Of a DNA stretch of 64,000 nucleotides, positions 4,976-42,689 are shown piece after piece. This stretch comes from Nymphaea colorata (Eukaryota; Streptophyta; Magnoliopsida; Nymphaeales; Nymphaeaceae): NCBI RefSeq assembly GCF_008831285.2, contig NC_045140.1, positions 10,224,505 through 10,288,504 of the forward strand, given 5' to 3'. Position 1 is the stretch's first letter. The number at the start of each line of letters is the position of its first letter. The notes under the pieces are model-generated. The model was given only the letters and a program-made list of their open reading frames with translations, did not search any database and was not told the DNA's origin. The position numbers and the translations under genes are program-made.

Positions 4976-7392
4976 GGTTGTATGTATGTTTAACATCTGA
5001 TGGGAGGGTTTTGAGACTGCTTATTGCGAATTGTGATTCTCAAGCTTATTGGTGAAAGGGTATGACAGGTTGCGTACAATTATATCGACGTGTGCCAACA
5101 TGGCGAAGGACTTAGTGGTTATATAGCACAAAATCAGCACTTTTTAAAATAATACATAATCCGAGACTGAAGATGTCTCCTGAGAATCTTACATAGCCGC
5201 GACCAATGTTCATTGTTTTTTTCCAAAACAAACTCTCAAGATACCTCCGTTTTCTTGAAGTTTTGAAAGGGTATCTGTGGATTGGTTCCTTTTTCGCGAG
5301 GTCAGTGTGCAGTTTGTGCAACCAAGATCTCATGCGTCAAAATATGGCCAATAGCAATGTCATCTATTGGGCGGCCAGAATTTTCCCAAGCTACACTGAA
5401 AATTAGCTATCTTCTGTATTCCAAAAACGATTAGCTTTTGAAAATGAAACGAGACATTTATTTTATGAGGTAGGTCTCAGATAATTCTGTATGATTTATC
5501 TACTAATGCCATGGCGGTCATGGTGGAATTTCTCGAACAACGTGCTGATCATAAGAGGCAACTGACTAAGCTTTCTTGTTCCTAGATGGATGCCAAAAAC
5601 AGTTCGCAGTAGACAGATTCCCAGGCACCCATGCTTTTTGGCACCTTTCAGCATTTCATCTGTTTTTCTGTGGACATGTGATTCATCATGGGCATTAATG
5701 TATGTTGGTACCACATTATATGCTGTCGTGAATAGAATCTTTCTACTGTTGACACGAAAATGTGGGCTCAAAGAAAAGTTTGAGGGCGTATGCCTGAATC
5801 CTCTTTATTGTAAGTACATCGAAGCAAAGCATCTGCCCATAGTGAACTGGATTGGAAAACTAAAAGAAATTACTGTATGGAGTTGATGGACGTGGACACC
5901 AATTACAAAAAATTCGTTCCAAGGTACAAAATCTTTTAAATATTTTCACTGTTGTTTCGTAGTTGCTAGCGGCCATGAATGATTTCCAGATCAATTTGGC
6001 AGAAGCTTAGCTGAGAAAAGCGGGAAGGTGCGGCTGTGCCCATATGAACTTTCCTCAAGTATCTGTAGCAATGCTGATCACGGCTTCCTGAGCTTGTCTA
6101 CCAAGAAAACGAAAGTCACCGATATAAATGCAACCTTCGTTCAGTTAATCAGGTAAAGCTTATATTTCCTTGTCTAGATTGGTGTTCTGTACTAAACAAA
6201 TGGAAAGTAAATCTTTAAGAAGCATTGTTTCTCTTTCTTAACTCCTTAGTGGGGGCATCATTTGGCTAACTTAAATATGCAAGAAGAGATACTTAAACCT
6301 TCGGCCATTGAGGGGAAAAGGGAAAGGTAGAATAACTTTGGACAGCATGCTTCCGTCCTTGTTCATCTTTTTCAACCTTTCACTTTGGTGGGGGGCATGA
6401 TTTGAGTGGTTAAATGAGTTTTCTTTAAGAACTTCGAATCATAGTCAGAAACATTGGCATATCTTCCAAAATCTCATAGTTCTTTTGCAAGATTTTCAGA
6501 AGCAGATGAAGTTGAGAATTGCACGATTTTTCAGGAATATAATCATTTAAAAAGTATTGTACAAAATAGTAATCTGAGAAAGATAACTTACTAATTTTTT
6601 AATGTACTGTTAACAATTCTGTTCTATATACTATATTATATATACAATGCATATGCAAGACATGGCATCTCTTTTGTTCATCAGCCCTGCCAGTTTAATC
6701 TATTGAAGAAACGTTGATCCTTTTCGAAAGGTTAAATTAAAACATGACAAATCCACTTTAGAAAACTTCCTCTTGATTATTTCTACTGAAAATTTTCAAG
6801 TCTTCCGTAAATTTCGGATTAAAGTATACTATAGTTTTATGACATTATCTTACCCGCAAGGACCATCTAACTGATATATATAACGGGGACACGCAATTTG
6901 GTGCTCCAGTCTACGAGGACATACCCTATGACATATTGGCACACAACCAAAAAATAGAGGCATGATCTGAACAGACTGAATCGCAATGATTCTGGATGCT
7001 TTTTCAATGAAATCATACTATTTTTGATAAAATATTAGAATACATTCAATTTATTAAAAAGCTTTACATCTGCATGTCGTATTTTTGCGAAAACAATTAA
7101 TGAATACGCGCCTCGTATTTCGTTCTTACATGTATCTCTGTGACATTGGCCGCTGAAAACAAGAAGCATCGTTTGGGTGTTCCCTACGTTATCGTACCGG
7201 ATCTGACCCATCTCAGGCAAGAGCAGCCACAAAGTAAAAGACAAGAAAAATTTTTACCGTTGAAGCAAGGTAAAAGAAGGCATCATATAGCAGACATGGT
7301 CCGATGCATTGCATCACACGATATGTTTAATCACATCTAATGCATTGCATCGAAATTGGAGGGACCTCAAGAAAGTAGGAGGATTCAGCTTT

Positions 7393-7430
<38 letters not shown>

Positions 7431-12500: not shown

Positions 12501-13760
12501 TCCAAACCTTCATAACTGGAACTACATGATTCTACATTAGAAAAAAGCATTATTAATATGGAATAAAATATGCAGAATATGACAAGCTACAACTATATAT
12601 GGTTTCTAGTCGGTGCATGGGACGAACAGTAAATTAATAGTAACATTACTATTATGAAATGTGATCGAATATTACGAGAGTACAATTTCTGCAAAGTACA
12701 TGATTGATATGGTTGGCCATACAAAACACCATAAATTCACAAAAAAAATACATTAAATTTGACATTGAACAAATTGATCTTCAACTTATTTTGAAAGCAT
12801 GATCTCACCTAGCTAAACTTGTGGCTACGGGTACTGCACAATGAGCTCAACTGATCGAGCTCAATTATATAGAACAGGGTAATGTTGGTGCAGTGGGTGG
12901 ATGGCATTTTTGGGATTCAAAAATCTGATTGTGCGGTTTCAGCGCAAGTTAAAGAAATATTTGATGAGTCGTAAAATTTCTGTTAGGGTGTCCTTTGGTA
13001 GCATCAGATCTCTGATTCCTTTTATGTGAGACCCACAATATAAACAAACACTGGATTTTAATGCTACATGAAAAAGAGGATTTAAGATCCTCAATTTATG
13101 CTCAAATTAACCTGAGATTTAGGTTGGGGGGTTGGTCTAACCACAAATCCTTGGATTTGAGATTCCCAGTGATCTCAAATCAGGATCCGGGGTCAACAAG
13201 CGACCTTTTGGCCGTGTTTGATAGCCTTGGTTCTTAGACTCGAGGCTGGATTTCAAGGCATCATCAACAGTTTTAGCAAACGGTGGATCCCAAAACCTGA
13301 GATTTCAAATCTTCGATGGGGACACAAAATCCATGCGTTTGAGATCCGACCCTCCTCCGATCTTCCATGCGGATCTGTGATCAGCTCGGGAAAATCTCGA
13401 GGGAAGCACCACTGCATCAGCGGCACACAGACAAAGAGAGGGAGTGAAATAGACACAAAGGGTGAGGCAAGAGAAACAGAGGAGGAGTATAAGAGAAAAA
13501 GATATTGAGATCTTAAATCAGCCACCTGAAGGAGTTGTCAAATTCCAAGCTGCGGACCTGCCTTCTTACTTCTTCCTTGCAGACACATACATCAGTCTTA
13601 TTGGATTGTAGTGTGAGTTTAGCAGCATTTTCCCCTTCTTTGTTATTCTTTTGTACGTGACCATTCATTTCTAATACAAGAGGTGAGTCATCTCCCAGCA
13701 ATTCTCATTGCAAACTCCTGCAACAAAAAGCTGGTAAAATGAGTTCGATGAGTATCGCTA
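9567..13760. other. Intergenic, no gene recognised
   Basis: Mostly AT-rich spacer. Open frames at 10400-10666 (minus) and 11268-11582 (plus, pyrimidine-rich) match no family I know. AT microsatellites lie near 10416-10438 and 11921-11936. Positions 13000-13520 have a TE-like composition (CCTTTGGTAGCA-type ends), but I could not pair termini. Confidence 0.45.
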
Positions 13761-13765
13761 ACAAA
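13761..13765. repeat. Left target-site duplication of the large Copia element (ACAAA)
   Basis: Five bases just outside the left LTR. The matching five outside the right LTR (29286-29290) read ACTAA, four of five identical. This supports a single insertion event for the whole 13766-29285 block. Confidence 0.6.
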
Positions 13766-14032
13766 TGTAAAACACAGGTCTAGCAAAAACTGACTACTTT
13801 TATTCTTACAGTGATTCTCATTATATTGAAGGAGATAATGCAGCTGTTATGGATTTGGATACATTAGTTACAAGAGAGAGATTAATAGAAAAATTCAAAA
13901 AATTGAATTACATGCATGCTTGCATGAGATGCCATAATATATTTCCTTACCTGAAGACATTGTCCTGATTCACTATTGGTTTTCTGTTATCTAATCCTTG
14001 AGACCTTCCATAATCGAATACATGCCTTAACA
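13766..14032 (-). mobile_element. Copia 3' LTR (left end in window coordinates)
   Basis: It begins TGTAAAACACAGG and ends CTTAACA, giving the TG...CA of an LTR. It aligns throughout with 28974-29285 (shared blocks CACAGGTCTAGCA, ATTATATTGAA, ATGCTTGCATG, TTTCCTTA, CATGYCTTAACA). It is 267 bp against 312 bp for the other LTR, the difference being mainly a CA/GA-rich stretch there. Confidence 0.82.
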
Positions 14033-14050
14033 GCCTTCTCAAGCTTAGCG
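14033..14050 (-). other. Polypurine tract of the Copia element
   Basis: Read on the minus strand, AAGCTTGAGAAGGC directly precedes the LTR start TGTTAAGGCATG. This resembles the CTTGAGGGGGAGTGTTAAG context common in plant Copia elements, and supports the orientation. Confidence 0.65.
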
Positions 14051-14139
14051 TGGGTTTGTTCACATTAAGCTTTACCAAAACTTCTCAAAATTAGAACAGT
14101 GCAGCAGTTGGACGAGTCCGTTAGCGACTTGTTGATCCG

Positions 14140-15270
14140 TTCAAATGAATTGATTGCTTACATCATCATTGTTAACATGATCCCATACCCAAAAAAAAAA
14201 AAATCATTCTTCAACATGCTTTATATGAGCATGAAAAAATGGATTTGCTGCTAAGTATAGAGCTCCGATAATGTCACATCATAGATCAGGAGGCCTTGAG
14301 AGTGATATAACAACTCGTCCAATAATGTTTCATCCATAATAATTCATTAGCTGTCTCTGCTAGAGATTTGTACTTGGACTCAATAGTTGACCGACCCAAG
14401 ACTCTATGTTTCTCGACTCCCAAGCTCTTAGATAGATGACAAATCCTCCCAAGATTTTCCATCCTATTCCCTACCAGTCCAGTTGGCATCCACAAATCCA
14501 CTTACAGGTGGAGATGGAGAAGGGTGAAAGTGCAAGTCATAGATGCTGCACCTTTTAAATACAACACAATTCTTTTGACTAAGCTCCAATGGGCATTAGA
14601 GGATTGTGCATAAATCCATTGGTTTTATTGACTAAAAAAGCAATGTTGGGTCTGGTTAGCGTGACGTAGTGAAGTCCTCCAATAATGCTGTGATAAAGTG
14701 ATGATTAGCAAAGGAAGATTGATCTTGAAATTTACTAATGGTGGGATCGTTGGGGTTGCCATCTTTTTTGCTTGTTGAAGCTTGGTTTCCTTAAGAATAT
14801 TGTGAGTATAAGAATCACCTCATTCCCATCTTTTATAATTTCAATTCCTTGGAAAAATGACAAGGTCCCAAGGTCCTTGATGGAGAAATTCTTCTTCAAT
14901 TGTTAAATGACTTGTTCAATAGTTTCTTTGGAGCTCCCTGAGACAATAAGGTCATCAACATATACAAGAATATAGATCTTGTTATTTCCCTTGATTGAAT
15001 ATGAACAATGATGAGTAAAAAGCAAGAGCTTGAAGCCATGGCTGATTAGAAAATCACTTAATGTCTGGTACCACACCCTGAGTGCTTATTTCAATCCATA
15101 GATTGCCTTATCCAACTTGCAAACATTGCAATGGTGCTTCGGATCCTCATATCCCTCCAATTGGCACATATGGAGATCCTCTGAAAGGAATCCAATTAGA
15201 AATGTATTGTCAAAATCAAGCTGGTATAATGACCATCCAAACTATCTATGTACGATGTGGACTCGAACCA
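14140..15270 (-). pseudogene. Copia pol fragment, RT C-terminal part and RNase H (duplicate copy 1)
   Basis: Read on the minus strand, the order is LYQLDFDNTFL, then VCKL-like KAIYGLK and WYQ, then ILVYVDDLIVSGSS (YVDD at 14951-14962, intact). Next come LGTLSFFQGIEI, YHRIIGGLHYVTLTRPNI, and the RNase H motif STIESKYKSLAETANELLWM. These are canonical Copia RT/RNase H blocks in correct order. Stop codons and frame slips make it a pseudogene. The N-terminal RT part is found again only at 26060-26260, beyond the mitochondrial DNA. Confidence 0.88.
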
Positions 15271-15479
15271 TTTCTCTTTTTCTTATGGACAAAAAAAAAA
15301 TCATTCTTCCCTCCATGGGGCACTATCTAATTCGATCTATTAGAATGGATCAGGCCATTTATCAATCCATCACGTTCATCTCGTATGCTCGTTCTGACTT
15401 TTCATCTACACTCATAGCTTGCTGTCTATGAAGCTCGCCTTCACTGGAATCAATAATCTTTCTAAGTGAAAGAAGATCT

Positions 15480-16840
15480 ATGAATCAACCAACGTATAAA
15501 AACATTGAAAAGCGAGTGCTTTGTGCACTCACCTGCAAAGATCACTTGCTTTGTGAGTGATTGCACAAAGAACTCGCAAAGCGTCGCAAAGCTTGCTTCG
15601 CTTTGTGAGTGATTGCACAAAGAACTCACAAAGCTTGCTTCGCAAGCCAAGCTGCCACCTGAAGCGATGGGACAAAAGTCTAGCTCTTTCTCAAAACTTT
15701 TGTTGCCTATGAGCTTTGAAGCAAGTTTGTGAGACCTATAGTGGAGAGTGAAGTGTACTATGTCAGCTGTGAAGTGAAGATCTTCCAGTGTCTTCGGAGC
15801 GGACCTAAAGTCAGTGCTATGCAAGCTATAACTGGGAGCATAGCAGCTTAGGAAAACATATGTGACAATACTACGTCAGTGTCAAAAGCTACATTTGAGT
15901 TCTTACGTCTGTATTACAACACCAGCTACTTAAACACTTTGTTTGATAAGGTCAGGTTAACACTCACTCTCTTCATCAAGCTCTTTACGGCTTGTGTAGA
16001 TGATCAATCTACACTCACAGTTTAAGTTGACTCCGTGATACAACAAGCAAAGCACTTTGCGAGTGCTTTCTTAAGGGATACTTTGAATGGCATTAGTGCC
16101 TACCTTTTAGTCGAATTCAAGCACTCCTTTCAATCTTCTCTTGAAGGTCAGGTCATATCCTTATTCAGGTCAGAACAAAGCCTTCTTGTTAATAATGAGT
16201 GCCATTAGTTAAAAAAGCACACTCTTTGGCTTCCCTAAAGTCTGTCATGTCATGTCATTTTGATAAGCAAACGCTTTATGAGTGCTTTGTGTTGGCACAC
16301 TCACTTCACTTTCGCTTCGCACAAAGGACGCACTCGCAAAACAAACAAGGCATTTGCAACTTCAAATTGCTGAAGCTTCTAAAGGTCACGTCAGAGCAAA
16401 GCCCTCTTGTGAAGAGGGCTTTGCTCGTGATGTGGCATTGGGGGCTTTGCTAATAGCGTGATGTTCCCTAACAAAATTTTGATTGAAAGTTGTGAGGGCT
16501 CCTATGAAAAAAAAAAGATGAAGAGTGGTTATGACAGGAGCTGTGGAGACTACACTAAGATACGAAATTGCATCAGCTTAGGATATAGTAAAGGCTAAGG
16601 AACAGTGTCTTCCACTATGAACCTAGACTACATTAAGGAACAAGGAAGCTTGACTGAAAAAAGAAGTCAAGGACCTCTAATAGCTGCCCATGAGGGCAAA
16701 GGGATTTTCCCAAGACTTTTTGTGTTCGAAGCTACCTTTTCATGTGCTATTTAGAATGAGGGGTGTGTTCTTAGGAAGAGCCGTACGAGGCAGCTCACAT
16801 ACGGTTCAGGAACCAAGCCCCATCACATAGGGGCTTAGGT
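15480..16840 (+). other. Mitochondrial rpl2 group II intron, 3' portion, with palindromic short repeats (copy 1)
   Basis: The stretch upstream of rpl2 exon 2 should be its group II intron. It is packed with GCAAAG/CTTTGC words, including a 52-bp tandem duplication starting at 15549 and 15601 and a perfect 15-bp inverted repeat at 16394-16426. Repeat-rich introns of this kind are known from some early-diverging angiosperm mitochondria, Nymphaea among them. That comparison is from memory. Confidence 0.65.
16778..16807 (+). ncRNA. Group II intron domain V (rpl2 intron, copy 1)
   Basis: GAGCCGTACGAGG...ACATACGGTTC is the catalytic domain V hairpin: the GAGCCGTA and TACGGTTC ends pair, with a short inner GAG/CTC stem. 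It lies about 40 bases before the exon 2 boundary, where a group II intron needs it. Copy 2 at 22864-22893 has GAGTCATATGAAG, which weakens the stem. Confidence 0.85.
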
Positions 16841-16844
16841 CAAC

Positions 16845-17504
16845 ACTTATATATTAGCCGGTCATCAATTGGAAGCAGCCAAGATGGTTATGAATTTAGA
16901 TTGGTCCAAACCTTCGACCAGTGGCTTCTTGCGACCCACCCACCATGCCCATACAACCCTGAGGTTCCAAGACCTTATTTGCACTGCGAATAAGGGCCGA
17001 GTGGAAGGGGGCAGTCAGCAGGCTACATCTGGGCCACGCCCTTTGCTTTTAGATAGGATATACTCGATCTTAATTATCAAGTAGGAAATTGCATACCATA
17101 AGCCAATATATGTAGAGGAACATAAGTACATGATATTGAATGTAATCTAGGTCAATGCGCAAAGCAGGCTCGAGGTGCAAGAACTTTTGCTAAAATAATG
17201 AAGGAACTAGCACAACAATGTCTTGTGCGGCTACCTTTGGCTGTTGAAAAACTCATTGATTCTTGATGCCGAGCTATTATTGGTATAGTTTTCAATCCCA
17301 ACCATGGTGCCTGTAAGCTTAGAAAAGTAGGACAAAGACAGTGGTTAGGCAGACACCTAATTGTTCATGATATTGCAATGAATCTAGTGGATCATCCTCA
17401 TGGAGGAGGTGAGGGGCGCACAAAAGGAGGTAATCCTTTAGTCACATTGGGGGAAGCCCACCAAAGTAGGATTTCAGACCGTAGTGTGGAAACATAGAAA
17501 TTAG
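16845..17504 (+). pseudogene. Mitochondrial ribosomal protein L2, exon 2 (nuclear pseudogene, copy 1)
   Basis: The conceptual product contains YILAGHQLEAAKMVMNLDW, SKPSTSGFLRP, GRVEGGSQQATSGPRPLL and, near the end, VDHPHGGGEGRTKGG with GKPTK and FQTVVWKHRN. The VDHPHGGGEGR...GGR block is the conserved C-terminal signature of L2 at the peptidyl-transferase region. Frameshifts follow residue 75 or so, and several in-frame stops break it. The next gene is rps19, as in plant mitochondria. Confidence 0.88.
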
Positions 17505-17507
17505 TTC

Positions 17508-17859
17508 ACGGCACGATGATCTATATGGAAGGGTAGTTTTATTGACCTTTTTAATGAAGAAAAAAAGAGAGAATGAAGTGAGCAATGTAGACTTTCATAG
17601 CAGAGATGCCAAATGTAGTAGTGTAGCCTTGCGTTGCAGTAGGACAGGCGTAACCATTTTCAGGAAAGTTTGGTCACATAGAATTTCTATTTTGCCAGAA
17701 TTTGTTGATTTTGGAGTGCAAATTTACAATGGAAAAACTCATTTTCGTTGTAAGATCACTGAAGGAAAGGTTGGACACAAATTTAGAGAGTTTGCTTTTA
17801 CATGGAAACGAAGACCTTCGAGAACAAATATTGGATCAGGAAGAAGGGGGAAAAACTAA
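17508..17859 (+). pseudogene. Mitochondrial ribosomal protein S19 with an in-frame insertion (copy 1)
   Basis: After a start equivalent reading ACG (ATG in copy 2) come SIWKGSFID, one frame slip, then MKKKRE. A stretch of about 30 residues (ENEVSN to TGVTIF) follows that is absent from the S19 proteins I know. Then comes the normal body: RKVWSHRISILPEFVD, IYNGKTHFRCKITEGKVGHK, EFAFTWKRRPSRTNIG. Usual plant mitochondrial S19 is about 90-95 residues; this would be about 117. The 3' end is intact. Confidence 0.9.
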
Positions 17860-17873
17860 AGTCAAAGCACCAT

Positions 17874-17948
17874 ATGGCACCAAAAAAAAAATCCAATTTC
17901 GGTAAGACTTGATCTAAATCATAATTCAGATTCAAGTCCATTCAGTTC
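17874..17948 (+). pseudogene. Mitochondrial rps3 exon 1 (copy 1)
   Basis: The expected start MARKGNPISVRL is visible after allowing a frameshift in an A-run (ATGGCACCAAAAAAAAAATC). It is followed by LDLNHNSDSSPF. Exon 1 of plant mitochondrial rps3 is about 75 nt, as here. The sequence then reads GGGCGACC, matching the GTGCG-type group II intron start. Confidence 0.8.
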
Positions 17949-18230
17949 GGGCGACCGCAAAAATCACCAGAGAGACCTATACTACAATAGAAGGCATGGG
18001 AGGACGTTGACGAACACGACTTCTTCTAATGCTAGAAGACCATAGGAAGACACCCAAGACTTGAGCATGTTGTGAAAGAAGCACATAGGGCGGGTGTGCT
18101 TCGACCGTGTCTTTGAGCCACAGCCGAATGTTTCTATCATGATCGTGAGGTGCAGGATACCAGGCTGATAAACCCGGCCAACATTGAAAGGCAAATGCTT
18201 GTGCTCAATAGAATCTCTCTCATTCGTCTC
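17949..18230 (+). other. 5' part of the mitochondrial rps3 group II intron (copy 1)
   Basis: It matches copy 2 (24006-24290) and then stops abruptly at CTCTCTCATT, where Copia sequence begins. It is truncated by the duplication junction. Confidence 0.7.
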
Positions 18231-19214
18231 TCAATCAATTAAATGCTTCCATCATCTTTGTTAACATGATCCTACAAAAAAAAATCTTCAACATACTTTG
18301 TACGAGCATGAAAAAATGGATTAGCTGCTAAGTATAGGGCTCCGATATTGTCACATCATAGGTAAGGAGGCATTGAGAGTGATATGCCCAACTCTTCCAA
18401 AATTTCATGCATAATAATTCATTAGTTGTCTCTGCTAGAGATTTGTACTTGGACTCAATACTTGACTGAGCAATGGTCTTTGTTTTGTTTTCTTGATCGC
18501 CAATAATTTATGTTTTCTCAATCCCCAAGACTCTATGTTTTCTCTTAGATAGATGATAAACCCTTCCAAGATTTTCCATCCTCTTCCCTACCAGCTCAAT
18601 GGGCATCCACAAATCCACTTACAGGTGGAGATGGAGAAGGGTGAAAGTGCAAGTCATAGATGCTGCACCTTTTAAATACAACACAATTCTTTTGACTAAG
18701 CTCCAATGGGCATTAGTAGGATTGTGCATAAATCCATTGGTTTTATTGACTAAAAAAGCAATGTTGGGTCTGGTTAGCGTGATATAGTGAAGTCCTCCAA
18801 TAATCCTGTGATAAAGTGATGATTAGCAAAGGAAGATTGATCTTGAAATTTACTAATGGTGGGATCGTTGGGGTTGCCATCTTTTTTGCTTGTTGAAGCT
18901 TGGTTTCCTTAAGAATATTGTGAGTATAAGAATCACCTCATTCCCAACTTTTATAATTTCAATTCCTTGGAAAAATGACAAGGTCCCAAGGTCCTTGATG
19001 GAGAAATTCTTCTTCAATTGTTAAATGACTTGTTCAATAGTTTCTTTGGAGCTCCCCGAGACAATAAGGTCATCAACATATACAAGAATATAGATCTTGA
19101 TATTTCCCTTGATTGAATATGAACAATGAATATGAACAATGATGAGTAAAGTTCAAGAGCTGAACAATGATGAGTAAAGTTCAAGAGCTTGAAGCGAGGC
19201 TGATTAGAAAATTA
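18231..19214 (-). pseudogene. Copia RNase H and RT fragment (duplicate copy 2, left part)
   Basis: It repeats 14140-15060 closely, including minus-strand YVDD at 19069-19080. It carries its own small changes: a local duplication at about 19118-19190 and extra sequence near 18470-18540. Copia similarity breaks at 19214, where a TIR element is inserted, and resumes at 21640. Confidence 0.87.
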
Positions 19215-20162
19215 GTTGGGGGCCGTTTGATGGATTGGAAATCTAGAATTGGAAAAATATTTCTGGAAATAAGTTTTCTGGAATAAAGGAATGAGAAAAA
19301 TCTTTTCTATTCTCATTTTGATGTGTGTGGGATGACTGAGAAATAAATTTCCAAAAAATTATTTCTTATTTTGATAATAAAGAAACATATTTCCAAAAAA
19401 TTATTTCTTACTTTGATAATAAAGAAACATATTTCCAGATTTGCATAATATAGATATAGTTTCTTAAATCACTAGTCTCGTTCTCTCTCCCTCTATCTCT
19501 CTCTTATATGTGGGAAATTGGTGAATCCTTGCCTCAGATACGGAAAATTGAGACCTAAAATTGACTTTTTTCAAATGTTGCAATACGCAGGTAGGGGGCA
19601 CTGGCAGTAAACTATCAGGACATGGTAATAACAGAAGTACAATTGGGAGTAGTAAATTTGATCAAGATATAGTAAATCATTTTAAAAGACAGGTGACCAT
19701 GGAGTCAGAAGAAACAATTTCAGTTGCAAAATTTTGAAGTACAACAAGGCCAAAATCTTCCCTGAAACCAGGACTACAGGTGCCTGGGCTTCCCACTTAA
19801 GATGCATTTCGATGGTAGCATACATTTCCATGGATGGTCCGAGATGAGGCGGAACAAACTGCAATCATGCACCACAAGCAAGAACTGCTCCTGCTGAACA
19901 ACTCAATATGGCACCTTTGATTTAATTGCAGGGACAACTACATCCAACAAAATGCTCCGAACAAACATAAAAATATACCTATTTGAATAGCAGAAGCATG
20001 AAGCTCTTATTTTACAGGGGATTGTGATTACAATAACATATGTGAAAAAAGAATGTACATAACTTCAATAAGCAAATCAACATTCAAGTGGGAGCTGAAA
20101 GAAATTATTAGAGCAAGGAATAAAAGCTCTATCACGCAAATCCATCACAAGAATCCTAAGTT

Positions 20163-20298
20163 GCCGGGGTACTCGAGGGTTTAGATTTTGTCTTTGCAAT
20201 GCTTACTAGATCACCAAAAAGTTTGTCTTCAGCCTTAGCTGGCTTCTTCGGTTGCAAATAAGCTGCTGCAGCTCCTGGTGGTGCAGGAAGCAGTAGTT
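20163..20298 (-). pseudogene. Captured exon fragment of a cellular gene, C-terminal end
   Basis: The minus strand reads LLPAPPGAAAAYLQPKKPAK, then AEDKLFGDLVSIAKTK and SKPSSTPAT before a stop. Preceding CTCCTCTGCAG is a good splice acceptor. The composition resembles the tail of a plant trafficking or adaptor protein, but I cannot name the family. No promoter or complete gene is visible. Confidence 0.55.
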
Positions 20299-20715
20299 AC
20301 TGCAGAGGAGGTTGATTTATAATGGTTCTTGATGTGGACCTACATTGTACATGATATTTAAAATTTTACTTTGAAGTAAGGGCAAAAAATGCTTCCATTG
20401 ATTGGAATTGCCATGAAGGTAATGGAAAATATAATAATATCCACAAAGCACGTTCTTACTTTTAGATTGCTCACAAACTGTAGGTAGAAAGTCAGTGATC
20501 TAAACTTACAAAAATCTCAACATAAAATAAATATTATATGCAACTTCGTTTGCTGGAATTGTGGTTCAAAATCCATACATATGGGTTATAAGATGTTTCC
20601 TTCAATTTTTATAAACTTGCAAAAATTTAAGGCTACCATGTGAAATCTTCACAATAACAAAAAAACACAAAGGAAACAACATGGCACAAGGAAAAGTCAG
20701 GATGTTCACTTATTA

Positions 20716-20818
20716 GCCCTGTTCAACATCCTTTGAACTAGTCTGTGCAGCATCTGAACCATCACCAATATCCAAAAGGACAGGAGGAGGCTTTTTCTGC
20801 TCAGGGCGAATGGCAATT
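20716..20818 (-). pseudogene. Second captured exon-like fragment
   Basis: On the minus strand, after the acceptor-like TTGCTTCAG, the frame reads GIAIRPEQKKPPPVLLDIGD, then GSDAAQTSSKDVEQG before a stop. It is open, hydrophilic and intron-flanked, which is typical of a host exon. It lies on the same strand as, and upstream of, the other fragment. Family not identified. Confidence 0.5.
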
Positions 20819-21639
20819 CCTGAAGCAATTGCGCCATGTCAGTGGGAGCTGAACTGTTGCAATCCACAACTCAAAGACGGGAGAAAACTAGAAATGGGGG
20901 GATGAAAAGAGAGAAGGAAGAGGGGGAGAAACAGTGTTTCATGTTGGATTCCCTCATAAGCATTTTAACAAACAGTTAATCCACGTAAGCTGCACATAAA
21001 TCTGTAACATGTAAAAGTTTAACAAAATGTAAATGGAAAAGACAGGTGCACAGACAACCAGAAGTCCTTTGGCTTGCATGGCTTGTGTGGAGATGAAGAA
21101 AAGGAAGCGTGCCAACAAAAACACCATTAGGAACACCGACATCAGCAAAACATTATAACAACAATGAGCAAATAGGAGCAATCAAGCATACAGAGCATAA
21201 TGTGTAATGCACACAAAGAAGGCAAATGGGCACAGTGAATGGGGAACAAGAGAGAGTGAGTGATAAAGGTCTCCATTTTCAGCAGCGCGAAGAACCCTTA
21301 CACTTGGATGTATGCCTGCTGAAGACAGAAGGTCGCTGTGGTATGAGGACTACCTACACAGCAGGAGAGTGAGAGGGCGAGAGAGACGACGAGGGGTGCA
21401 GGAGAGTGAGAAGGCGAGAGAGACGATGATGGGATTGAGTGCGAGCGTTCCGTAATGGGCAAAAAAAAAACTGGAAACATATTTCCGCCTCTTGTTGTGG
21501 AAATATGTTTTCGGAAAAAAATTCCGGAATTGGCTTCAACAGTCATAAAATTTTGTCCACATTTGCTGGGCTGGAAAAATTTTAAAAATTTGATTTTTTT
21601 TTTGTTCAACAGTAGATTTCCAGCCTGTCAAATGGGCCC

Positions 21640-21868
21640 TTAATGTTTGGTACCACACCTTGAGTGCTTGTTTCAATCCATAGATTTCCTTATCCGACTC
21701 TCAAACATTACAATGTGCTTAGGATCTTCATATCCCTCCAATTGGCACATATAGACATCATCTGAAATCAATCCAATTATAAATGCATTGTCAAAATCAA
21801 GCTGGTGTAATGACTTGCAAACATTGCAATGTGCTTAGGATCCTCATATCCCTCCAATGGGCACATAT
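21640..21868 (-). pseudogene. Copia RT fragment (duplicate copy 2, right part)
   Basis: Continues the Copia RT broken by the TIR element, from the YGLK / RVWYQ region upstream toward LDFDN. A local duplication of about 110 bp (starts 21706 and 21816) repeats the CAATGTGCTTAGGATC segment. Confidence 0.8.
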
Positions 21869-22863
21869 AAACCATTTCTCTTTCTTTATGGGCAAAAAAA
21901 AAAATCATTCTTCTCCCCATGGAGCACTATCTAATTCCATCTATGAGAACGGATCAGACCATTTATCAACCTATTGTGTTCATCTCATAGGCTCATTCCG
22001 ACTCTTTGTCTACACTCGTAGCTTGCTGTCTAAGCTCGCCTTCACTAGAATCAGTAATCTTTCTAAGTGAAAGAAGATCTATGAATCAACCAATGTATAA
22101 AAACATTGAAAAGCAAGTGCTTCGTGCAATCACTCGCAAAGATCACATGCTTTGTGATTTCACAAAGAACTCACAAAGCTTGCTTCACTTTGTGAAGCCA
22201 AGCCGCTGCCTATAGCGATGGGACAAAAGTCTAGCTCTTTCTCAAAACTTTTGTTGCCTATGAGCAAAGTTGCAGGAGCGAGCTTCAAAGCGAGGTTGCG
22301 AGGCCTGTAGTGATGAGTGAAGTGGACTACACAAGCTGTGTAGCAAGGATCTTCCAGATTGCCACTTCTTCGTAGCAAACCTAGAGTCAGTGCAATAAAA
22401 GCTGTAACTGCGAGCGTAGCATCTTAAGAAAACATATGTGGCAATACTACGTTAGTGTCGCAAGTTCAAATTGTTGAAACTTCTGAAGGTCACGTTAGAG
22501 CAAAGCCCTTTTGTGAAGAGGGCTTTGCTTGTGACGTGACGCTTGGGGCTTTGCTAATAACATGACGTTCCCTAATACAATTCTGATTGAAAGTTGCAAG
22601 GAGTCCTACGAAAAAGAAGAAGAAGAATGGTTATGAATGGGAGCTGTGGGGACTACACTAAGGTGCAGAGTTGCATCAGCTTAGTATATAGAAAATGCTA
22701 AGGAACATAATCTTCCACTATGGACCGAGACTACACTAAAAAACAAGGAAGCTGGACTGAAAAACGAAGTCAAGGACCTCTAATAGCCGCCCAAGAGGGT
22801 GAAGGGATTTTCCAAAGTTTTTTTGTGTTGTTCAAAAAGAGGGGTGGGGGGGGGTTCTTAGGA

Positions 22864-22893
22864 AGAGTCATATGAAGCAGCTCACATACGGTT
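22864..22893 (+). ncRNA. Group II intron domain V (rpl2 intron, copy 2, degraded)
   Basis: Same position relative to exon 2 as in copy 1. The 3' strand CATACGGTTC is kept, but the 5' strand reads GAGTCATA, so the helix carries mismatches. Confidence 0.75.
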
Positions 22894-22933
22894 CAGGAGC
22901 CAAGCCCCAATGCATAGGGTCTTAGGTCAACAC

Positions 22934-23559
22934 TTATATATTAGCCAATCATCAATTGAAAGCGGGCAAGATGCTCGTGAATTTATATTGGTTCAAACCT
23001 TCGACCAGTGGCTTCTTGCAACCCGCCCATCATGCCCATACAACCCTGAGGTTCCATGACCTTGTTCGCACTACGAATAAGGGCCGAGTGGAAAGGGGCA
23101 GTCAGCAGGCTACTTCTGGGGCACGCCTCTTGCTTTTAGATACCATATACTTGATCTTGATTATCAAGCAGGAAATTTCATACCATTAGCCGATATATGT
23201 AGAGGAACATGGGTACGTGATATTGAATGTAATCCAAGTCAAGGCACAAAGCTGGCTCGAGCTGTAGGAACTTTTGCTAAACTAATGAAGAAACCAGCAC
23301 CATAATGTCTTGACAAACTCATTGATTTCTGATGCTGAGCTACTATTAGTATAGTTTCCAATCCCAACCATGGTGCACATAAGCTTAGAAAAGTAGGACA
23401 AAGCCGATGGTTAGGCAGACACCCAATTGTTTGTGGTGTTGCAATGAATCGAGTGGATCATCCTCATGGAGAAGGCAAAGAGGTAGACCTACGGTGTCAC
23501 CTTGGGGGAAACCCACCAAAGCAAGATTTCAGACCATAGTGGGAAAGCACAGAAATTAG
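22934..23559 (+). pseudogene. Mitochondrial rpl2 exon 2 (copy 2)
   Basis: Same protein blocks as copy 1 (SGFLQPAHHAHTTLRFHDLV, GRVERGSQQATSG). A deletion of roughly 30 nt lies near 23305, and VDHPHGEGKE replaces the glycine-rich signature. It is more decayed than copy 1 in this part. Confidence 0.85.
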
Positions 23560-23562
23560 TTC

Positions 23563-23916
23563 ATGGCACGACAATCTATAAGGAAGGGGAAGTTTTGTTT
23601 ACCATTTTTAATGAAGAAGAAAAGAGAAAATGAAGTGAGCAATGTAGGCTTGCGTAGCAGAGACGCCAAAAGCAGCAATGCAGCCTTGCATAGTGGTAGC
23701 ACAGGTGTAACCATTTTTAGGAAAATTTGGTCATGTAGATCTTCTATGTTGCCAGAATTCGTTGATTGTAGAGTATAAATTTACAATGGAAAAACTCCTG
23801 TTTGTTGTAATATCACTGAAGGAAAGGTTGGTCATAAATTTGGAGAATTTGCTTCTACATGGAAACGAAGACCTTTGAGAACAAAGATTGGATCAGGAAG
23901 AAGGAGGAAAAAGTAA
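23563..23916 (+). pseudogene. Mitochondrial rps19 with the same in-frame insertion (copy 2)
   Basis: It starts at ATG (MARQSIRKGKF). It carries the same extra stretch between MKKKRE and RKIW, then SSMLPEFVD, a premature TAA at 23776-23778 where copy 1 has CAA, and the intact tail IYNGKTP, ITEGKVGHKFGEFA, TWKRRPLRTKIG. It is a single frame of 117 codons apart from that one stop. C-to-T change is the usual decay route for a methylated nuclear insertion. Confidence 0.9.
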
Positions 23917-23930
23917 AGTCAAAGCACCAT

Positions 23931-24005
23931 ATGGCATGAAAAGGAAATCCAACTTCGGTAGGACTTGATCTAAATCATAGTTCAGATTCAAGTCTGTTCA
24001 GGAGG
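23931..24005 (+). pseudogene. Mitochondrial rps3 exon 1 (copy 2)
   Basis: It reads MA, a stop (TGA for CGA), then KGNPTSVGLDLNHSSDSSLF, and is followed by GTGACCACG, a group II intron start. The 75-nt length matches the family. It confirms the gene order rpl2, rps19, rps3. Confidence 0.88.
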
Positions 24006-25300
24006 GTGACCACGAAAGTCACGGAAGAGTCATATACTATAAAAAAGGTATGGGAGGACGTTGCAGATGTTCGGCATAGACACGACTTCTGCTAACGCTA
24101 GAAGACCATAGGAAGATACCCAAGACCTGAGCATGTTGTGAAAGAAGCACACAGGACGGGCGTGCTTCGACCATGTCTCTAGGGCATAGTGGAATGTTTC
24201 TATCATGAATGCGAGGTGCAGGATACCAGGACGATAAACCTGGCCAACATTGAAAGGCAAAAGCTTGTGCTCAATACAATCTCTCTCATTTAATTAGGTC
24301 TTCGACCAAGACTGTGCTCAGTTCCGGATCCAATCTTTGAGAGAGCTGCCCTTTAAAGTGTGTCTTCCTGTATGAACACTAAAAGTAGAGGACTGCCTTT
24401 TTTGAAGCAAGGACCTTTAGTCCTTTCAAACATGCTAATCAGGCATTTTGATGTCATTAGGATAGGAGGGTACTGATATCCAGTAGTCAGTCAGTTACCG
24501 CCCATGGCCCAAGCTAGGTCCGACCAACACTATACTCTGAATCTCAAGTACTATGTCAGGAAGAGTTTCCAATGAAAGAGAAGGCAAGAAGACATTCTGC
24601 TCAAGGGTATCAAGCCTGAAGTAATGAATAGTGAATGTGAACCATTAGTGTTTATAGAACCATCAGTTTGATAGTTCAGTCAAAGCAAAGTCCAATACAG
24701 GCCCTCAATGACCAACTACATAGCCAAACATCTCCCATTGAGAAAGCAAGTGTGCTCTTCAACTATAAGGCTGCAATAGCAGCTTGGAACTGATAGAGAT
24801 CCACTTGAGAGTCCAACTTATGGTCAACCCTAGACGCAAGAACTAGTGGGGTACTGATAGTGGAAGTTCTGTCAGCTTCAGCTCTGTTTACTATGACCTA
24901 TGTTTTTCATATTTGGCTGTTGGTTGTTGACTTTTCTAGTCCAGGCCTTCTATTATTTATATTGGAAGTTCTTTAATGAAGTGTCTCATCAGAGTGGCAG
25001 TGAAAGTCTAAGTCAATCAAAGCCGCTAAGGGTTGGTACTCTCTTTCAGGAAGGTCAGTCTCACTACAAGCAAAAGCTCTCACTACATATGACAAAGAGG
25101 GCATTCTACCGATGAAGCTCGTGGGGCGGAGGTGTCAAGAGCTATCGACTCAACTGGGTAGGGTTTTCTTCATATCTACAACTAGTTCAACACAGATCAG
25201 TTGTTCACCACCCCCCCCCCCCAAAATGAAAGAGGAACCCCAAGTGTCAACGTTTATGTTCTTATTTGTTTCATGCGGTTCAAGATGGGTCTTCTTTTGA
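24006..25300 (+). other. Mitochondrial rps3 group II intron, 5' and middle part
   Basis: No coding frame. It follows exon 1 directly, shares its first 285 bases with block 1, and includes a C-run at 25208-25222. I did not find a domain V or exon 2, so the intron is incomplete here. Confidence 0.55.
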
Positions 25301-26059
25301 GTGATGCAATTACCCTTTCAAACTTTGATAAACACTTTTCCACATCAAGAGTGAATTCTTGATACTATTTGACTTCTTGAGTACATTATTGTTCATTTCT
25401 TTTTTCCTTTGGTCTCCTAACATACATTATTTGGTCATAGAAAGATTAGAAAGACCCCATTTTGGCTTTCACTTTCTTTGATTCAATTAAAAGAAAGGTG
25501 GAGAAGAAAAAGGAAACTAGAACAATAGTCAATAATCATTAAATATAATGAGAGAGAAAAAAACAAACTTATCTGGTCTTTTTGGATCCCAGTGAAGGCA
25601 AAGGTAGTGAAGTAGGTCCCATCTATCCTTCTGTCTGTATTATCCAGTCAGAGATCAAATGACTAGGGTCAATACGAGAACTTGAAAACAAACTTAAATG
25701 AACAAAGCACACTCAGACTTTACGTATCATGTCTGAATCTGTCTGGGGTTTGCAATGAAAAGATCAATCAAAGATCATGTATTTCTGTTCTGGGAGTGGA
25801 GAATATAAAATAGAACGAATATTTTTTTTTTAAATTTTTTTCTTTGAAGAAGATTAGGTCATCACAAAAACTTAGCTTAGAACTTAATTCGTTTTCCAGT
25901 TCACTTCTACTGTTTGGATCTATGACGAATGGAATACTGGTCAAATCTCATTCGTATGATATTATTCTATAAAGAAAGAGGACAACAGGTTATAGAAAGG
26001 AACGAAATAGTAGAAGAGTACGAGAAATTCAAAGAGATTCTTGGGTGGGAGTCAGGAAT

Positions 26060-28970
26060 GCAATTTTTCGTGAGTGAGATAAAAACTCTTATAATGGCTG
26101 GTTTTAACACTGGGTTGAAGGTCTCTGAGTAAGCTATTATGTTCACTTGAAGATACCTTTTTGCAACTAAGCGAGCTTTGTATCAAGGGTTGGATCTGTT
26201 GGCATTGCATTTTAATTTGTCCACTCATTTGCACCCAATAATATTATATATAGTGTGACTTTGTTGGTAGCAACTCAACAATAAAAACTCTGAACAGCTT
26301 GGGTATAGGTCACTTGTTCAATTTCAGCATCATCTTGAGTAGTGGAAATGAAAGCCCTTGATTTAAATGATCTTGTCATGGTAGGGATGCATTCATGGTT
26401 AGGTCTGTCCACAACAGCGACTGGATTTGAGGTAGGCATAGCATTAGTTGAGGTGTGATGGTTTCACTATTTTCTAAGTTGGCTTTTAGAGGAATGACAT
26501 CAATATTTGATTCCAGTGATGGCATTCAACTCATAGTTTGGGACCTAAAAAGTTGGTTGGTATAACACTATATGACCACTATGGGATTGAGTTTCAGTTG
26601 GTGTATGGCCGATGGTGAGGCTGAAGTTTGAGATATTCCTTTGGACACATCCTGGCTATGTGACCCTAGAATTTGGGGTCATAGTTTGGGTATGTTGTGA
26701 ATAGGTTCTCATTGACTAAAATTCAGTTCTGGTGCATTCAAAATGGTATGATCATGATATTGAGCTCCTTCAATGAATACCACATGCCGTTTCATGAAGA
26801 CCTCATGAGATTTAGGATCAAGAGTATCCTTTGCGTCAAATTCCACAACCTATAAAGATACCTTGACCTACAGCTTGTGTTGATTGTAGGGCATCAATAA
26901 CAGGTAACAAACACCTATAAATGCTTTTATGATGGAGAAATTGAAAACCTATTTGAATAGATGATCAAGCAAAGAGACATAAATTTTGAGGAAGACAACT
27001 AGTTTACAATGAATATTGCAGTACAAAAGCATCAAAACAGAATTCATTTCCAATTTTGGCTTCTTGAAGCATAGTTAAAGTTGCTTCAACAATATGACAG
27101 TGCTTAGATTCAGAAAGCCCATTTTTTTCAAGTGTACAAGGGTAAGAATACCAGTGTATAATGCCATGCATCTTCAAGTATTGTTCACAATTTTGACTGC
27201 AATGTTCATCACCATTGCCAAATTGAAAAAAGAGAACTTAATGGACATTTGAAGATGCTTTTCAATAATGGACTTAAAATGAATAAAACAGTTACAAACA
27301 TCAGATTTATTCTTTATAGGAAATATCCAGGAAAGCCTAGCAAAATAATCAACTGGGAGTAGATAAAATTGAAAGCCCTCTCTCTTTGGGATCAGTGATG
27401 CTGCCTAGACAAAACCGTGTATCATTTCTAACGGTTGATGGAAACAGAGCTTCTGTGACTTTCTGGCAGCTCAATGTTCACACACTAATGAAGACACATC
27501 CAATCCTTTCTTGAAAACAAGTTCCTTGAGCTAAGCTTGGCTAATTTGTGAGCATCGGTGTGACCAAGATGCCTATACAAGTACAGATATGTGCCTTCTT
27601 TGGCAGCAGCTAGCAAGGCAACTTTGCAGTGGGCTCTATTCGATAGAAGCTTGCCTTCGTCTTCTTTTCCTTCAGATGGATTTTGCTTGATCGACAATAC
27701 TTGATCACAAGATTGTAATGGTGAAATTTAATCTATAATCATTATCAATAGAGAACTTTCCTATTGAGAGAAGGTTATTCGAGATGCCAGACACATGCAA
27801 AGTATTTTTTAGAATAAAATAAGAACTCCCAAGATATAAAAGTTGATCTCCAACATGAGTTCCACATAATAAAGTACAATTTCCAACAAGTATAGAGTTA
27901 GTACCTGATAAATATATTTATTTGCTGTACTGACTAGAATGACTAATATTATGTATAGCATCCATATCTCGATACCAGCAGTCATTCTCCTTGTGAACAT
28001 TTGTGGCAGATAATGCTCTAGAAATTCCTAACAAGCTCAGGCCAAGTGACCTTTCCTCTTATAGTGTTGATAGGTTATGAGTGGATGTTGAGACTTATTT
28101 TGGGTTTGGTTGGTGTTTTCGACTTTGCTAGTTTCTATTGTTTCTATCTTGGCTTCATCCTCATTCATTAAATGGACCTTGACCTTGACTTCTTCCTCTA
28201 AATGCATTGAATGCCACATGTATGCTCATTGCTTTCTTGAACTTTTGGTTTTTATCATAGCTAGTCGGCTTTCTTGATTATTGAGTAGATCATAAAGGTC
28301 TGGAAATGATGGTGATGAAGAATTTATACATGTCGTGAGAGTTGTGACAAAACTCTTGTTTTCGGTTGAAAGACCGTTTAGAGCAATTTGAACTCGATCA
28401 ACGTCGGGAGTCTTGTGACCGGCTGTCTGCCAAGTGTTGCCTGATTTGTTATAGACATATCATCTTTCTTGATAAAATCGAGGTCCTTTTTCAGCATCAT
28501 TGACAACCGGGGAGATTGAGGGCCATATGTGTGTTCAATTTAACTCCATGCCTCTCTTGCGGTTTTGGTGTGAATGGTCTGACTTAGGATGCTTTCTATT
28601 ATATGGTTTTGGTATGAATTGTCTGACTTAGGATGCTTTCTATTATAGTGTTTCAAATCAAGTTGACAGCTAGCTTAAACGACTTGCACCACTTTTCATA
28701 CACTGGATTGGCACTCTTTTCTCCTTTGTCATTCTCAATAAACTATTGAGGTGGTTCTTTAGTGCCATCCACAAATGACAGCAGCTCCTAGGACTCCATG
28801 ATAGAGTAAAGTTGACTTTTTAATAGTAAATAATTTTCCCTTGTTAATTTGATGGAGGGCGAGACTGGCAATGGCATTTCATTGCATGCCTCCAACCAAA
28901 CATGACGATGTTGCCATATCAACTCAATAGACTTGCTCTTAAGAGCTACCTCGAAGGATCTGTATACCAT
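26060..28970 (-). pseudogene. Copia gag, protease, integrase and RT start (5' half of the large element)
   Basis: Minus-strand order from the right: gag start (LPVSPSIKLTRENYLLLKSQ), a zinc-knuckle remnant (YKRKGHLA), a protease region, then the pre-integrase motif YLYLYRHLGHTDAHKLAKLS. Next come the integrase tail (DPKSHEVFMKRHVVFIEGAQ) and the RT start (CKWVDKLKCNANRS..., YKARLVAKRYLQ, ETFNPVLKPAIIRVF). The RT is cut after this last motif at about 26060. Its continuation, GWSLYQLDFDNTF, is at 15270. Stops and frame slips are frequent. Confidence 0.85.
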
Positions 28971-28973
28971 AAA
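28956..28973 (-). other. Copia primer binding site
   Basis: On the minus strand TGGTATACAGATCC lies next to the 5' LTR. It resembles TGGTATCAGAGCC, complementary to initiator tRNA-Met, with one extra base. It fixes the direction of the element. Confidence 0.65.
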
Positions 28974-29285
28974 CGTAAAACACAGGTCTAGCAGAAACTT
29001 TGAGACAACTTCTATTCTTAGAGTGATTCCCATTATATTGAAAGTGACAATACAACTGTTATAAATTTGATAGATATATCAGGTACAACACACACACACA
29101 CTCACATATAGAGAGGGAGGGAGAGAAAGAGATAATAGAAATTCAAAAAATTGAATAACACACATGCTTGCATGGGGCACCATAATGTATTTCCTTATCT
29201 AAAGATCTTGTCCTAATTCATTGTTAATAACAAATTTTTGTTTTCTAATCTTTGACACCCTCCATAATCATTACATGTCTTAACA
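28974..29285 (-). mobile_element. Copia 5' LTR (right end in window coordinates)
   Basis: Partner of 13766-14032. The inner end has mutated to CG (CGTAAAACACAGG). The outer end is CTTAACA, followed by ACTAA, the probable target duplication. It contains an expanded CACA and GAGAGG stretch (29085-29140). Confidence 0.82.
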
Positions 29286-30039
29286 ACTAAGGTTTTTAAG
29301 ATAAGAAGTTCAAGGGTCATGAAAAAAGCAAGCGAAGAAAACCTAGCTCCTAAACTATTAAGATAAAAAAGTAAATATATTAAGCAAACAATGAAGATAG
29401 AAAGAGCAAGTGCACACACATAACAAGCAATTGAGATATAAGTCAAGTGAAGCTTAGCTAAGCTTGAGATGGTGCACTAAATCTCATGTTGAGCTTAAGC
29501 TAGGCCATCAAACACTATATCCTAGTTCAAGCAAGCAGAGCTTGGCTCATGAATTCCCTTATATGGCTCTATAGTTGAGTAAACCCTAAAGTGACCAGTA
29601 TCTAATTTCTTCAAAAAGGAAATGTAATATAGTCGCTCATGATATATAATATTATAGTTTAGGCAAACATGTGGAATTAATGGAAATAATTGAAGTTACA
29701 TTTTTTGGAATCAGAAGGAAAAAAATACAGTGATAGAATGAAGACCAAATTTTGCAAATTAAAATCAAGAAAGAGAAAGAGATCACAAATAAAGCAGTGG
29801 CAGAGCCATAAATTTTTTGCTAAGAGACACTAATTCAAATAATCTAATAAAAATATATAAATAATTTAGGGGCAAGGAAACCAATAAAAAAACAAAGAGA
29901 TTTTATGGAATTGTGTGTGCAGCTCATACCTAGCACCGACTGAGAGCTAATTTGATAAAAAGGGGAGAGCGAAGAGAAAAAAATGAGGTGAAATAGAGCA
30001 AACAGAGCTAGAGAAGCAGTAACAGAGATGTATGTGGCT

Positions 30040-41870: not shown

Positions 41871-42600
41871 CTTGACTAAAAATGCATTAAACTACCAAAA
41901 AAATCATGCATTTTGTTAAAAGGAAAAATTATTTAATGCATTTTGAATTGTCTGACCTAAACCTCCCAACTAAAAATGTGTCCTCATGCATCCAATCACC
42001 AACGTGAACGTGTCAACAAGATCATGTCGCTAGGTATGAATAAAAGCAACTAAAAAAGTTTCTTACTATCTCTGCCAGATTGAAGCTAGCTGGTTCAGCT
42101 TTATTTGGAATGGATATGAATGAGCAAAATTTTCAAAATTTTAATATAAAAATAAAAAAAATTTTGTCGGGCAGGTGTGGGCAACTTCCACACCTACCTA
42201 TGTGGCTCTGCCATTCGTAGAATAGGTAGATCCAAAATGACTGCTGTAATAGCCTGAGTGGAACCCCGAACTGAATAATTAACTCAACAGCTTTTTAATT
42301 AGTATAATTATGCTCTTCATTCTGTCGATATGGTTAAAGAGTCAAACACAAGCTTATTCACTATATTCACGAACTTGATCGGTCTCCTTTATGAGTAGCA
42401 AAGCCATTTGAACTTTTTGACAATATCTGTTTCGACCTGCGTGCCTGTCTCCCCATGAGACATGAACAATGAAAAAAAAAATTCCCACCTAAAACAAACG
42501 AAAACAAGGCAAGAGAATGATGCCAAACAGAAATGGCAACAATGAACTATCAGGATCAAAGTAAAACATATCAACTTGCAAACATGAGTGAAATTAGTTC
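41869..42600. other. No gene recognised
   Basis: AT-rich spacer before the tandem array. Confidence 0.5.
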
Positions 42601-42689
42601 AAGGAAAACAATGCCCAGGCTTTACCCAAAAAAAAGCAAAAACCTCTTCTAATGACAAACAAGATGAATCAAAAGGAATGAAATCGGTG

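What the first reader, a model, noticed from the sequence alone, without database searches (positions are those of the whole stretch)
13766..29285. Mitochondrial gene block sitting inside one Copia element, then tandemly duplicated with part of it
The two LTRs, opposite ends of gag-pol and near-matching 5-bp flanks (ACAAA/ACTAA) indicate one 15.5-kb Copia insertion on the minus strand. Its RT stops at ...KPAIIRVF (about 26060) and restarts at GWSLYQLDFDN (about 15270). The DNA between is mitochondrial rpl2-rps19-rps3 on the other strand. The RNase H/RT end plus mitochondrial DNA (14140-18230) is repeated as 18231-24290. The simplest history is Copia insertion, repair-linked capture of mitochondrial DNA in RT, tandem duplication, then a TIR element in copy 2. 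An alternative is that the mosaic formed in the mitochondrion and moved as one piece.
Basis: partly seen in the sequence, partly recalled or inferred. Interest (0 to 1): 0.75.

Follow-up and report, generated by a model that had tools for sequence, protein, structure and literature searches.

The report
Organelle DNA mosaic inside a retrotransposon
In a water lily chromosome, a dead jumping element was broken in its copying-enzyme gene and patched with scraps of mitochondrial and chloroplast DNA, and part of the patch was then duplicated; it is a very legible example of a known kind of genomic scar.

Summary
The window lies on contig C3 of what is almost certainly Nymphaea colorata: contig C782 is 617,195 bp, the published mitogenome length. 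One old Copia element (LTRs 13766-14032 and 28974-29285, minus strand) is split in RT between 26072 and 15241; against a related RT only about 9 bp is missing.

The insert is not one mitochondrial block. It joins at least four mitochondrial pieces (C782:324177-324311; 466254->466109; 469193->466601 with rpl2-rps19-rps3; 518808-520387), a short repeat-rich stretch, a filler of about 25 bp and one plastid piece (C783:33155->32838). RT end plus much of the insert was then tandemly duplicated, early: about 13% (5-21%, an upper bound) of post-capture change is shared by both copies. A TIR element later entered copy 2, and about 0.5 kb of the RT copies was homogenised. CpG decay shows nuclear residence.

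Searches with the two Copia halves and the plastid piece returned no mitochondrial-contig match, so a mosaic formed in the mitochondrion is not supported. Best reading: mosaic NUMT/NUPT captured during break repair; a new member of a known kind, no sign of function.

The parts
28974..29285 (-). Copia 5' LTR (element on minus strand); ACTAA just outside; decayed PBS-like motif just inside
   Evidence: 82.7% to the other LTR over 266 aligned bases; PBS motif recognised from recall
26072..28973 (-). Copia gag to first part of RT, many stops; RT ends at ..AIIRVFISL
   Evidence: RVT_2 model 34-69; genome search with 26060-29285: 11 matches, none on C782
25758..26070 (+). Plastid fragment F6, C783:33155->32838, abuts RT
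   Evidence: 90.9% over 318 alignment columns
25733..25757 (+). Filler of about 25 bp between F5 and the plastid fragment, origin not found
   Evidence: limits by eye
24245..25728 (+). Mitochondrial fragment F5, C782:518808-520387, in full only on this side
   Evidence: 82-83%
22194..24249 (+). Mitochondrial fragment F4, copy 2 (rpl2, rps19, start of rps3), with a deletion of 507 alignment columns
   Evidence: C782:469194->466601
21880..22130 (+). Mitochondrial fragments F1 (part) and F2, copy 2
19218..21639 (.). TIR element in copy 2 only; ends GGGGGCCGTTTGATGG../..CAAATGGGCCC with TTA near both ends; PIF/Harbinger-like by recall
   Evidence: genome search for it did not complete
18240..21870 (-). 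RT end and RNase H, copy 2, interrupted by the TIR element
   Evidence: 18546-19129 is 97.6% identical to 14431-15011
18179..18239 (+). Mitochondrial fragment F5, first 61 bp, copy 1, up to the duplication breakpoint
   Evidence: 91.8% to C782:518808-518868
15644..18183 (+). Mitochondrial fragment F4, copy 1: rpl2 intron 3' part and exon 2, rps19, rps3 start; broken copies
   Evidence: 86.0% with gaps to C782:469193->466601; group II domain V hit at 16775-16811, E 0.0046, below its gathering score; Ribosomal_S19; stops
15525..15643 (+). Repeat-rich stretch resembling short mitochondrial repeats
   Evidence: short matches on C782, e.g. 213118-213184, 91821-91881
15379..15524 (+). Mitochondrial fragment F2, C782:466254->466109
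   Evidence: 90.4% over 146 bp
15245..15383 (+). Mitochondrial fragment F1, C782:324177-324311
   Evidence: 88.5% over 139 columns
14033..15241 (-). Copia second part of RT, RNase H end and decayed PPT, copy 1; duplication unit begins near 14149
   Evidence: PPT from recall
13766..14032 (-). Copia 3' LTR; ACAAA just outside

Best explanation
A mosaic NUMT/NUPT captured at a double-strand break inside the RT gene of an old Copia element. Organelle DNA fragments (at least four mitochondrial, one plastid) were end-joined to each other and to the broken RT, with about 0-5 bp of shared bases at the joins, one filler of about 25 bp and about 9 bp of RT lost. Soon afterwards a 4.1-kb stretch (RT end, F1, F2, F4 and the first 61 bp of F5) was tandemly duplicated. 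Later a TIR element entered copy 2, and gene conversion homogenised about 0.5 kb of the two RT copies. The anatomy, the order capture-then-duplication and the nuclear decay are shown. Break repair as the mechanism and gene conversion are inferred. No function is proposed: the rpl2, rps19 and rps3 copies are broken; F5 and the plastid piece were not examined for genes.
For: RT split with 9 bp between the aligned pieces in related locus L008, and RVT_2 resumes at model position 75 after ending at 69. Nearly the whole original insert (copy 1 plus the part right of copy 2) is assigned to organelle fragments, except the filler and the repeat-rich 15525-15643, which shows only short mitochondrial matches. 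Non-CpG divergence of the pieces from the organelle is alike: F1 6.8%, F2 7.0%, F4 7.6% and 8.3%, F5 10.2%, plastid 7.7%. CpG transitions at 86 of 276 sites in copy 1, against 69 of 955 other C/G and 19 of 1284 A/T sites. Shared derived changes 17 against 4.6 expected, private changes 77 and 76. The F1|F2 and F4|F5 joins occur in both copies with their own mutations, so they predate the duplication and are unlikely to be assembly joins. mtDNA is collinear through stretches taken as rpl2 and rps3 intron (domain V hit; intron limits otherwise from recall), which points to DNA, not RNA, as the carrier.
Against: No long reads could be mapped. F5 is more diverged (10.2%) than the other pieces. The filler's origin is unknown. 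F1, F2, F4 and F5 might have been adjacent in an ancestral mitogenome, so the number of joins made at insertion is an upper estimate. Shared bases at the joins were read by eye in diverged sequence. The F1 start at the RT join in copy 2 is altered by a local duplication, so that join is seen clearly in copy 1 only.
Confidence: 0.9

Rival explanations
1. The Copia-organelle mosaic formed in the mitochondrion and moved to the nucleus as one piece.
For: Plant mitogenomes do take up retrotransposon and plastid DNA (PMC6852956, passages).
Against: No match on C782 for the RT end (57 matches, 40 of 68 candidates scored), gag-RT (11 matches, 11 of 11 scored) or the plastid piece (39 matches, 38 of 38 scored). 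BLAST of 13001-30000 against the fetched 150 kb of C782 gave no Copia row either. The element has both LTRs and near-matching 5-bp flanks.
Confidence: 0.03
2. An ancestral mitogenome already carried F1-F2-F4-F5 and a plastid tract side by side, and this one stretch, without Copia, was captured in RT with one join at each end.
For: The fragments have similar divergence. [quoted passage not shown]
Against: The NUMT of the same region on C7 continues past C782:466601 in present mitochondrial order. The plastid piece gave no C782 match. F2 comes from downstream of F4 yet sits upstream of it. A filler lies between F5 and the plastid piece.
Confidence: 0.12
3. Two unrelated Copia elements flank an organelle insertion, not one split element.
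For: The LTRs are only 82.7% alike.
Against: With 26060-29285 as query the only near-full-length LTR match elsewhere is this locus's own other LTR; seven other LTR matches are of 40-49 bases. The RT halves are complementary without overlap.
Confidence: 0.02
4. Assembly chimaera joining organelle reads to a chromosome.
For: Small contigs with plastid sequence remain in the assembly.
Against: The insert differs from the organelle genomes by 8-12% with CpG decay; the F1|F2 and F4|F5 joins occur in both diverged copies. The published assembly filtered organelle reads (PMC7015852, passages).
Confidence: 0.01

Closest known systems
Mosaic NUMT/NUPT loci of plants (PMC7037861, section on organisation read, passages)
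   Same: Fragments of both organelles joined; microhomology or blunt joins; C-to-T decay; tandem duplication of organelle inserts is also mentioned there
   Different: Here the target is one identifiable Copia RT with about 9 bp missing, the duplicate includes retrotransposon flank, and the two copies let the duplication be timed
NUMTs/NUPTs co-located with transposable elements, e.g. papaya rps15 NUPT near Ty3-gypsy (PMC7037861, passages)
   Same: Organelle DNA next to or in retrotransposons
   Different: No sign that this element moved the insert: the mosaic was found only at this locus in the searches made
Ty1/Copia LTR retrotransposons
   Same: LTRs, RVT_2 RT, order of genes, PBS and PPT remnants (motifs from recall)
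   Different: Dead; RT split; at DNA level its gag-RT half has one distant relative (66%) and short hits only, while the RT end has relatives at 69-82% over short stretches

Membership tests
NUMT/NUPT mosaic (nuclear organelle DNA) | Nuclear sequence homologous to the species' own mitochondrial and plastid genomes | tested here: met
   C782 and C783 matches; that C783 is the plastid genome is inferred from its 159,842 bp and not gene-tested
NUMT/NUPT mosaic (nuclear organelle DNA) | Lies in a chromosome | tested here: met
   Window is C3:10224505-10288504 of a 30,884,114-bp contig; no reads checked
NUMT/NUPT mosaic (nuclear organelle DNA) | DNA-mediated (introns kept) | tested here: met
   Collinear with mtDNA through the rpl2 intron 3' part and past rps3 exon 1; domain V hit E 0.0046, below gathering score; intron limits partly from recall
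NUMT/NUPT mosaic (nuclear organelle DNA) | Nuclear mutational decay at CpG | tested here: met
   Copy 1: 86 of 276 CpG against 69 of 955 other C/G sites; copy 2: 68 of 219 against 60 of 786
NUMT/NUPT mosaic (nuclear organelle DNA) | End-joined junctions (microhomology, filler, small target loss) | tested here: met
   read by eye; about 9 bp missing from RT against L008
Ty1/Copia element | Paired LTRs with target duplication | tested here: met
   82.7% LTRs; 5-bp flanks 4 of 5 alike
Ty1/Copia element | Copia-type RT (RVT_2) | tested here: met
   4 of 4 RT pieces hit RVT_2, 1 of 4 above the curated cut-off on its own
Ty1/Copia element | PBS for initiator tRNA-Met and PPT | tested here: inconclusive
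   decayed remnants seen by eye; motifs from recall
PIF/Harbinger (element in copy 2) | TIRs with TTA target duplication | tested here: inconclusive
   imperfect TIR seen by eye; TTA directly at the right end (21640-21642) but 3 bases off the GGGGGCC at the left end; the BLAST self-comparison did not list the end pair
PIF/Harbinger (element in copy 2) | Harbinger transposase or related copies | not tested
   genome search not answered

The most novel reading that the evidence does not exclude
Organelle DNA was joined into the Copia's own extrachromosomal DNA before it integrated, so that the retrotransposon brought the organelle mosaic into the chromosome as cargo. The LTR clock (17.1% outside CpG, about 8.6% per LTR) and the capture clock (6.8-10.2%) cannot tell the two dates apart, so this is not excluded.
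Probability: 0.06. Interest if true: 0.6.

Novelty: new member of a known kind. Interest (0 to 1): 0.3.

Why it matters
It is an unusually legible record of one organelle-to-nucleus transfer: the target gene, the donor fragments, the junctions and the order of later events can be read, and the duplicate gives an internal clock and an internal check on the assembly. It is a useful worked case of how plant nuclei patch breaks with mitochondrial and plastid DNA, here in an early-diverging angiosperm. It does not change what is known about the process.

Tried and rejected
Rejected: mosaic formed in the mitochondrion; two separate Copia elements; functional gene transfer (rpl2, rps19 and rps3 copies carry stops and frame changes); RNA-mediated transfer (mtDNA collinear through intron stretches); assembly chimaera (divergence, and joins present in both copies). 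The two Rfam mir-9457 hits (29.1 and 24.5 bits against a gathering score of 90) fall on a hairpin-forming repeat found at many places of the mitochondrial contig and are taken as chance. An empty site for the Copia insertion was looked for with 601 bp of left flank: 31 matches; apart from the locus itself none extends past query base 309, so none reaches the insertion point. The right flank was not searched.

Led nowhere: a first Pfam call with two typed pieces found nothing (one piece was mistyped). Literature: the listings named no paper that I could see to describe this locus or arrangement; of the papers listed I looked only at passages of PMC6852956, PMC7037861 and PMC5704215 and at one section of PMC7037861. 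Of PMC6092842 I saw the abstract and passages, of PMC7015852 passages.
Full report
What the window is. The window is C3:10224505-10288504 of an assembly of 407,766,735 bases in 783 contigs. Contig C782 is 617,195 bp, the exact length of the published Nymphaea colorata mitogenome (abstract of PMC6092842). The nuclear genome paper reports 409 Mb in 804 scaffolds, 14 pseudo-chromosomes and PacBio reads filtered for organelle DNA (PMC7015852, passages); the copy held here is close to that but not identical in contig number. C783 is 159,842 bp; that it is the plastid genome is my inference.

The host element. Two LTRs, 13766-14032 and 28974-29285, are 82.7% identical over 266 aligned bases with 7 gaps and are flanked by ACAAA and ACTAA, 4 of 5 alike. 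Decayed PBS- and PPT-like motifs lie inside (recognised from recall). gag to RT lies at 26072-28973 and the rest of RT with RNase H at 14033-15241, all on the minus strand and full of stops. Searching the genome with 26060-29285 gave 11 matches: itself, its own other LTR, one relative at 66%, and eight short ones of 40-85 bases. The RT end has more relatives (57 matches, the distant ones 69-82% over short stretches), so the element is an isolated member of a larger group. RT pieces match Pfam RVT_2 at model positions 34-69 on one side and 75-123, 127-184 and 187-224 on the other. In the related RT of locus L008 the two sides are separated by 9 bp. So one element was split, with about 9 bp lost.

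What fills the break. Reading the + strand from 15245:
F1, C782:324177-324311 (window 15245-15383, 88.5%).
F2, C782:466254->466109 (15379-15524, 90.4%).
A repeat-rich stretch with short mitochondrial matches (15525-15643).
F4, C782:469193->466601 (15644-18183, 86.0% with gaps), with the 3' part of the rpl2 intron, rpl2 exon 2, rps19 and the start of rps3.
F5, C782:518808-520387 (18179-18239 in copy 1; 24245-25728 in full).
About 25 bp of filler.
F6, plastid, C783:33155->32838 (25758-26070, 90.9%), next to RT at 26072.
The joins, read by eye, show about 0-5 shared bases. No match on C782 was returned for the RT end (57 matches, 40 of 68 candidates scored), for gag-RT (11 matches, 11 of 11 scored) or for the plastid piece (39 matches, 38 of 38 scored, three of them on C782 and all three outside the plastid piece). 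BLAST of 13001-30000 against the 150 kb of C782 that I held gave no Copia row. The search tool warns that very common words are skipped, so absence is as good as those searches.

Duplication. Copy 1 runs from about 14149 to 18239, copy 2 from 18240 to about 24290. The F1|F2 and F4|F5 joins are present in both copies with their own mutations, so they are older than the duplication and unlikely to be assembly joins. The RT|F1 join is clear in copy 1 only; in copy 2 a local duplication has altered it.

Clocks. Outside CpG, the LTRs differ at 45 of 263 sites (17.1%) and the mitochondrial duplicates at 195 of 1608 (12.1%; Fisher p 0.029). Organelle against insert: F1 6.8%, F2 7.0%, F4 7.6% and 8.3%, F5 10.2%, plastid 7.7%. 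Similar values fit one capture, F5 being the outlier. Over 1384 non-CpG sites where a separate NUMT on C7 agrees with the mitogenome, 77 changes are private to copy 1, 76 to copy 2, 17 are shared and 7 differ in all; 4.6 shared are expected by chance and 0 of 2000 permutations reached 17. About 13% (5-21%) of post-capture change preceded the duplication. This is an upper bound because changes in the mitochondrial lineage also count as shared; at 12 non-CpG sites the C7 copy sides with both window copies against the mitogenome, so such changes exist. LTR age per lineage (about 8.6%) and capture age cannot be told apart; the order Copia then capture rests on nesting.

Nuclear decay. In copy 1, 86 of 276 CpG sites show transitions, against 69 of 955 other C/G sites and 19 of 1284 A/T sites; copy 2 is alike (68 of 219, 60 of 786, 26 of 1032). 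The C7 NUMT is closer to the mitogenome (94.6%).

Later events. A TIR element of about 2.4 kb (19218-21639) sits in copy 2 only. From 14500 to 15011 the two RT copies differ at 6 of 512 aligned bases, while 60-bp windows just to the left differ at 5-13 and just to the right at 5-7. For 14431-15011, 14 differences in 581 has a binomial tail of 1e-19 if 13% is expected and 7e-13 if 10% is expected. Gene conversion between the tandem copies is the simplest reading; the frame there is broken, so selection is an unlikely cause.

Mechanism and standing. Organelle DNA as filler in double-strand break repair, mosaics of plastid and mitochondrial pieces, co-location with transposable elements, and tandem duplication of such inserts are described in the review PMC7037861 (section read, passages). 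This locus is a well-preserved member of that kind. In the listings I saw no paper describing this locus. The most novel reading left open is that the organelle DNA was joined to extrachromosomal Copia DNA before integration; the clocks do not exclude it, and nothing else points to it.

Noticed in passing
L032 (C7:15405000-15414999), about 5748-7402: A second, younger NUMT of the same rpl2-rps19-rps3 stretch (94.6% to the mitogenome), continuing past C782:466601 in present mitochondrial order; apparently an independent transfer.
   Followed up: partly
window 16347-16434: A hairpin-forming repeat of about 88 bp with many matches on the mitochondrial contig (e.g. C782:415014, 17251, 111109, 178385) and some on chromosomes; scores weakly as Rfam mir-9457, far below its gathering score.
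   Followed up: no
window 14500-15011 and about 18617-19129: Sharp-edged tract of near identity between the tandem RT copies inside more diverged duplicates, read as gene conversion.
   Followed up: yes
window 42598-49867: Several overlapping direct repeats of 0.7-2.4 kb at 78-85% identity, apparently a decayed tandem array.
   Followed up: no
window 56170-56664 and 56864-57376: Inverted repeat of about 0.5 kb, 81% identical.
   Followed up: no
C495, C669, C662, C574, C567 and other small contigs: Small contigs of the assembly carry the same plastid stretch at about the same identity, so leftover plastid sequence remains in it.
   Followed up: no
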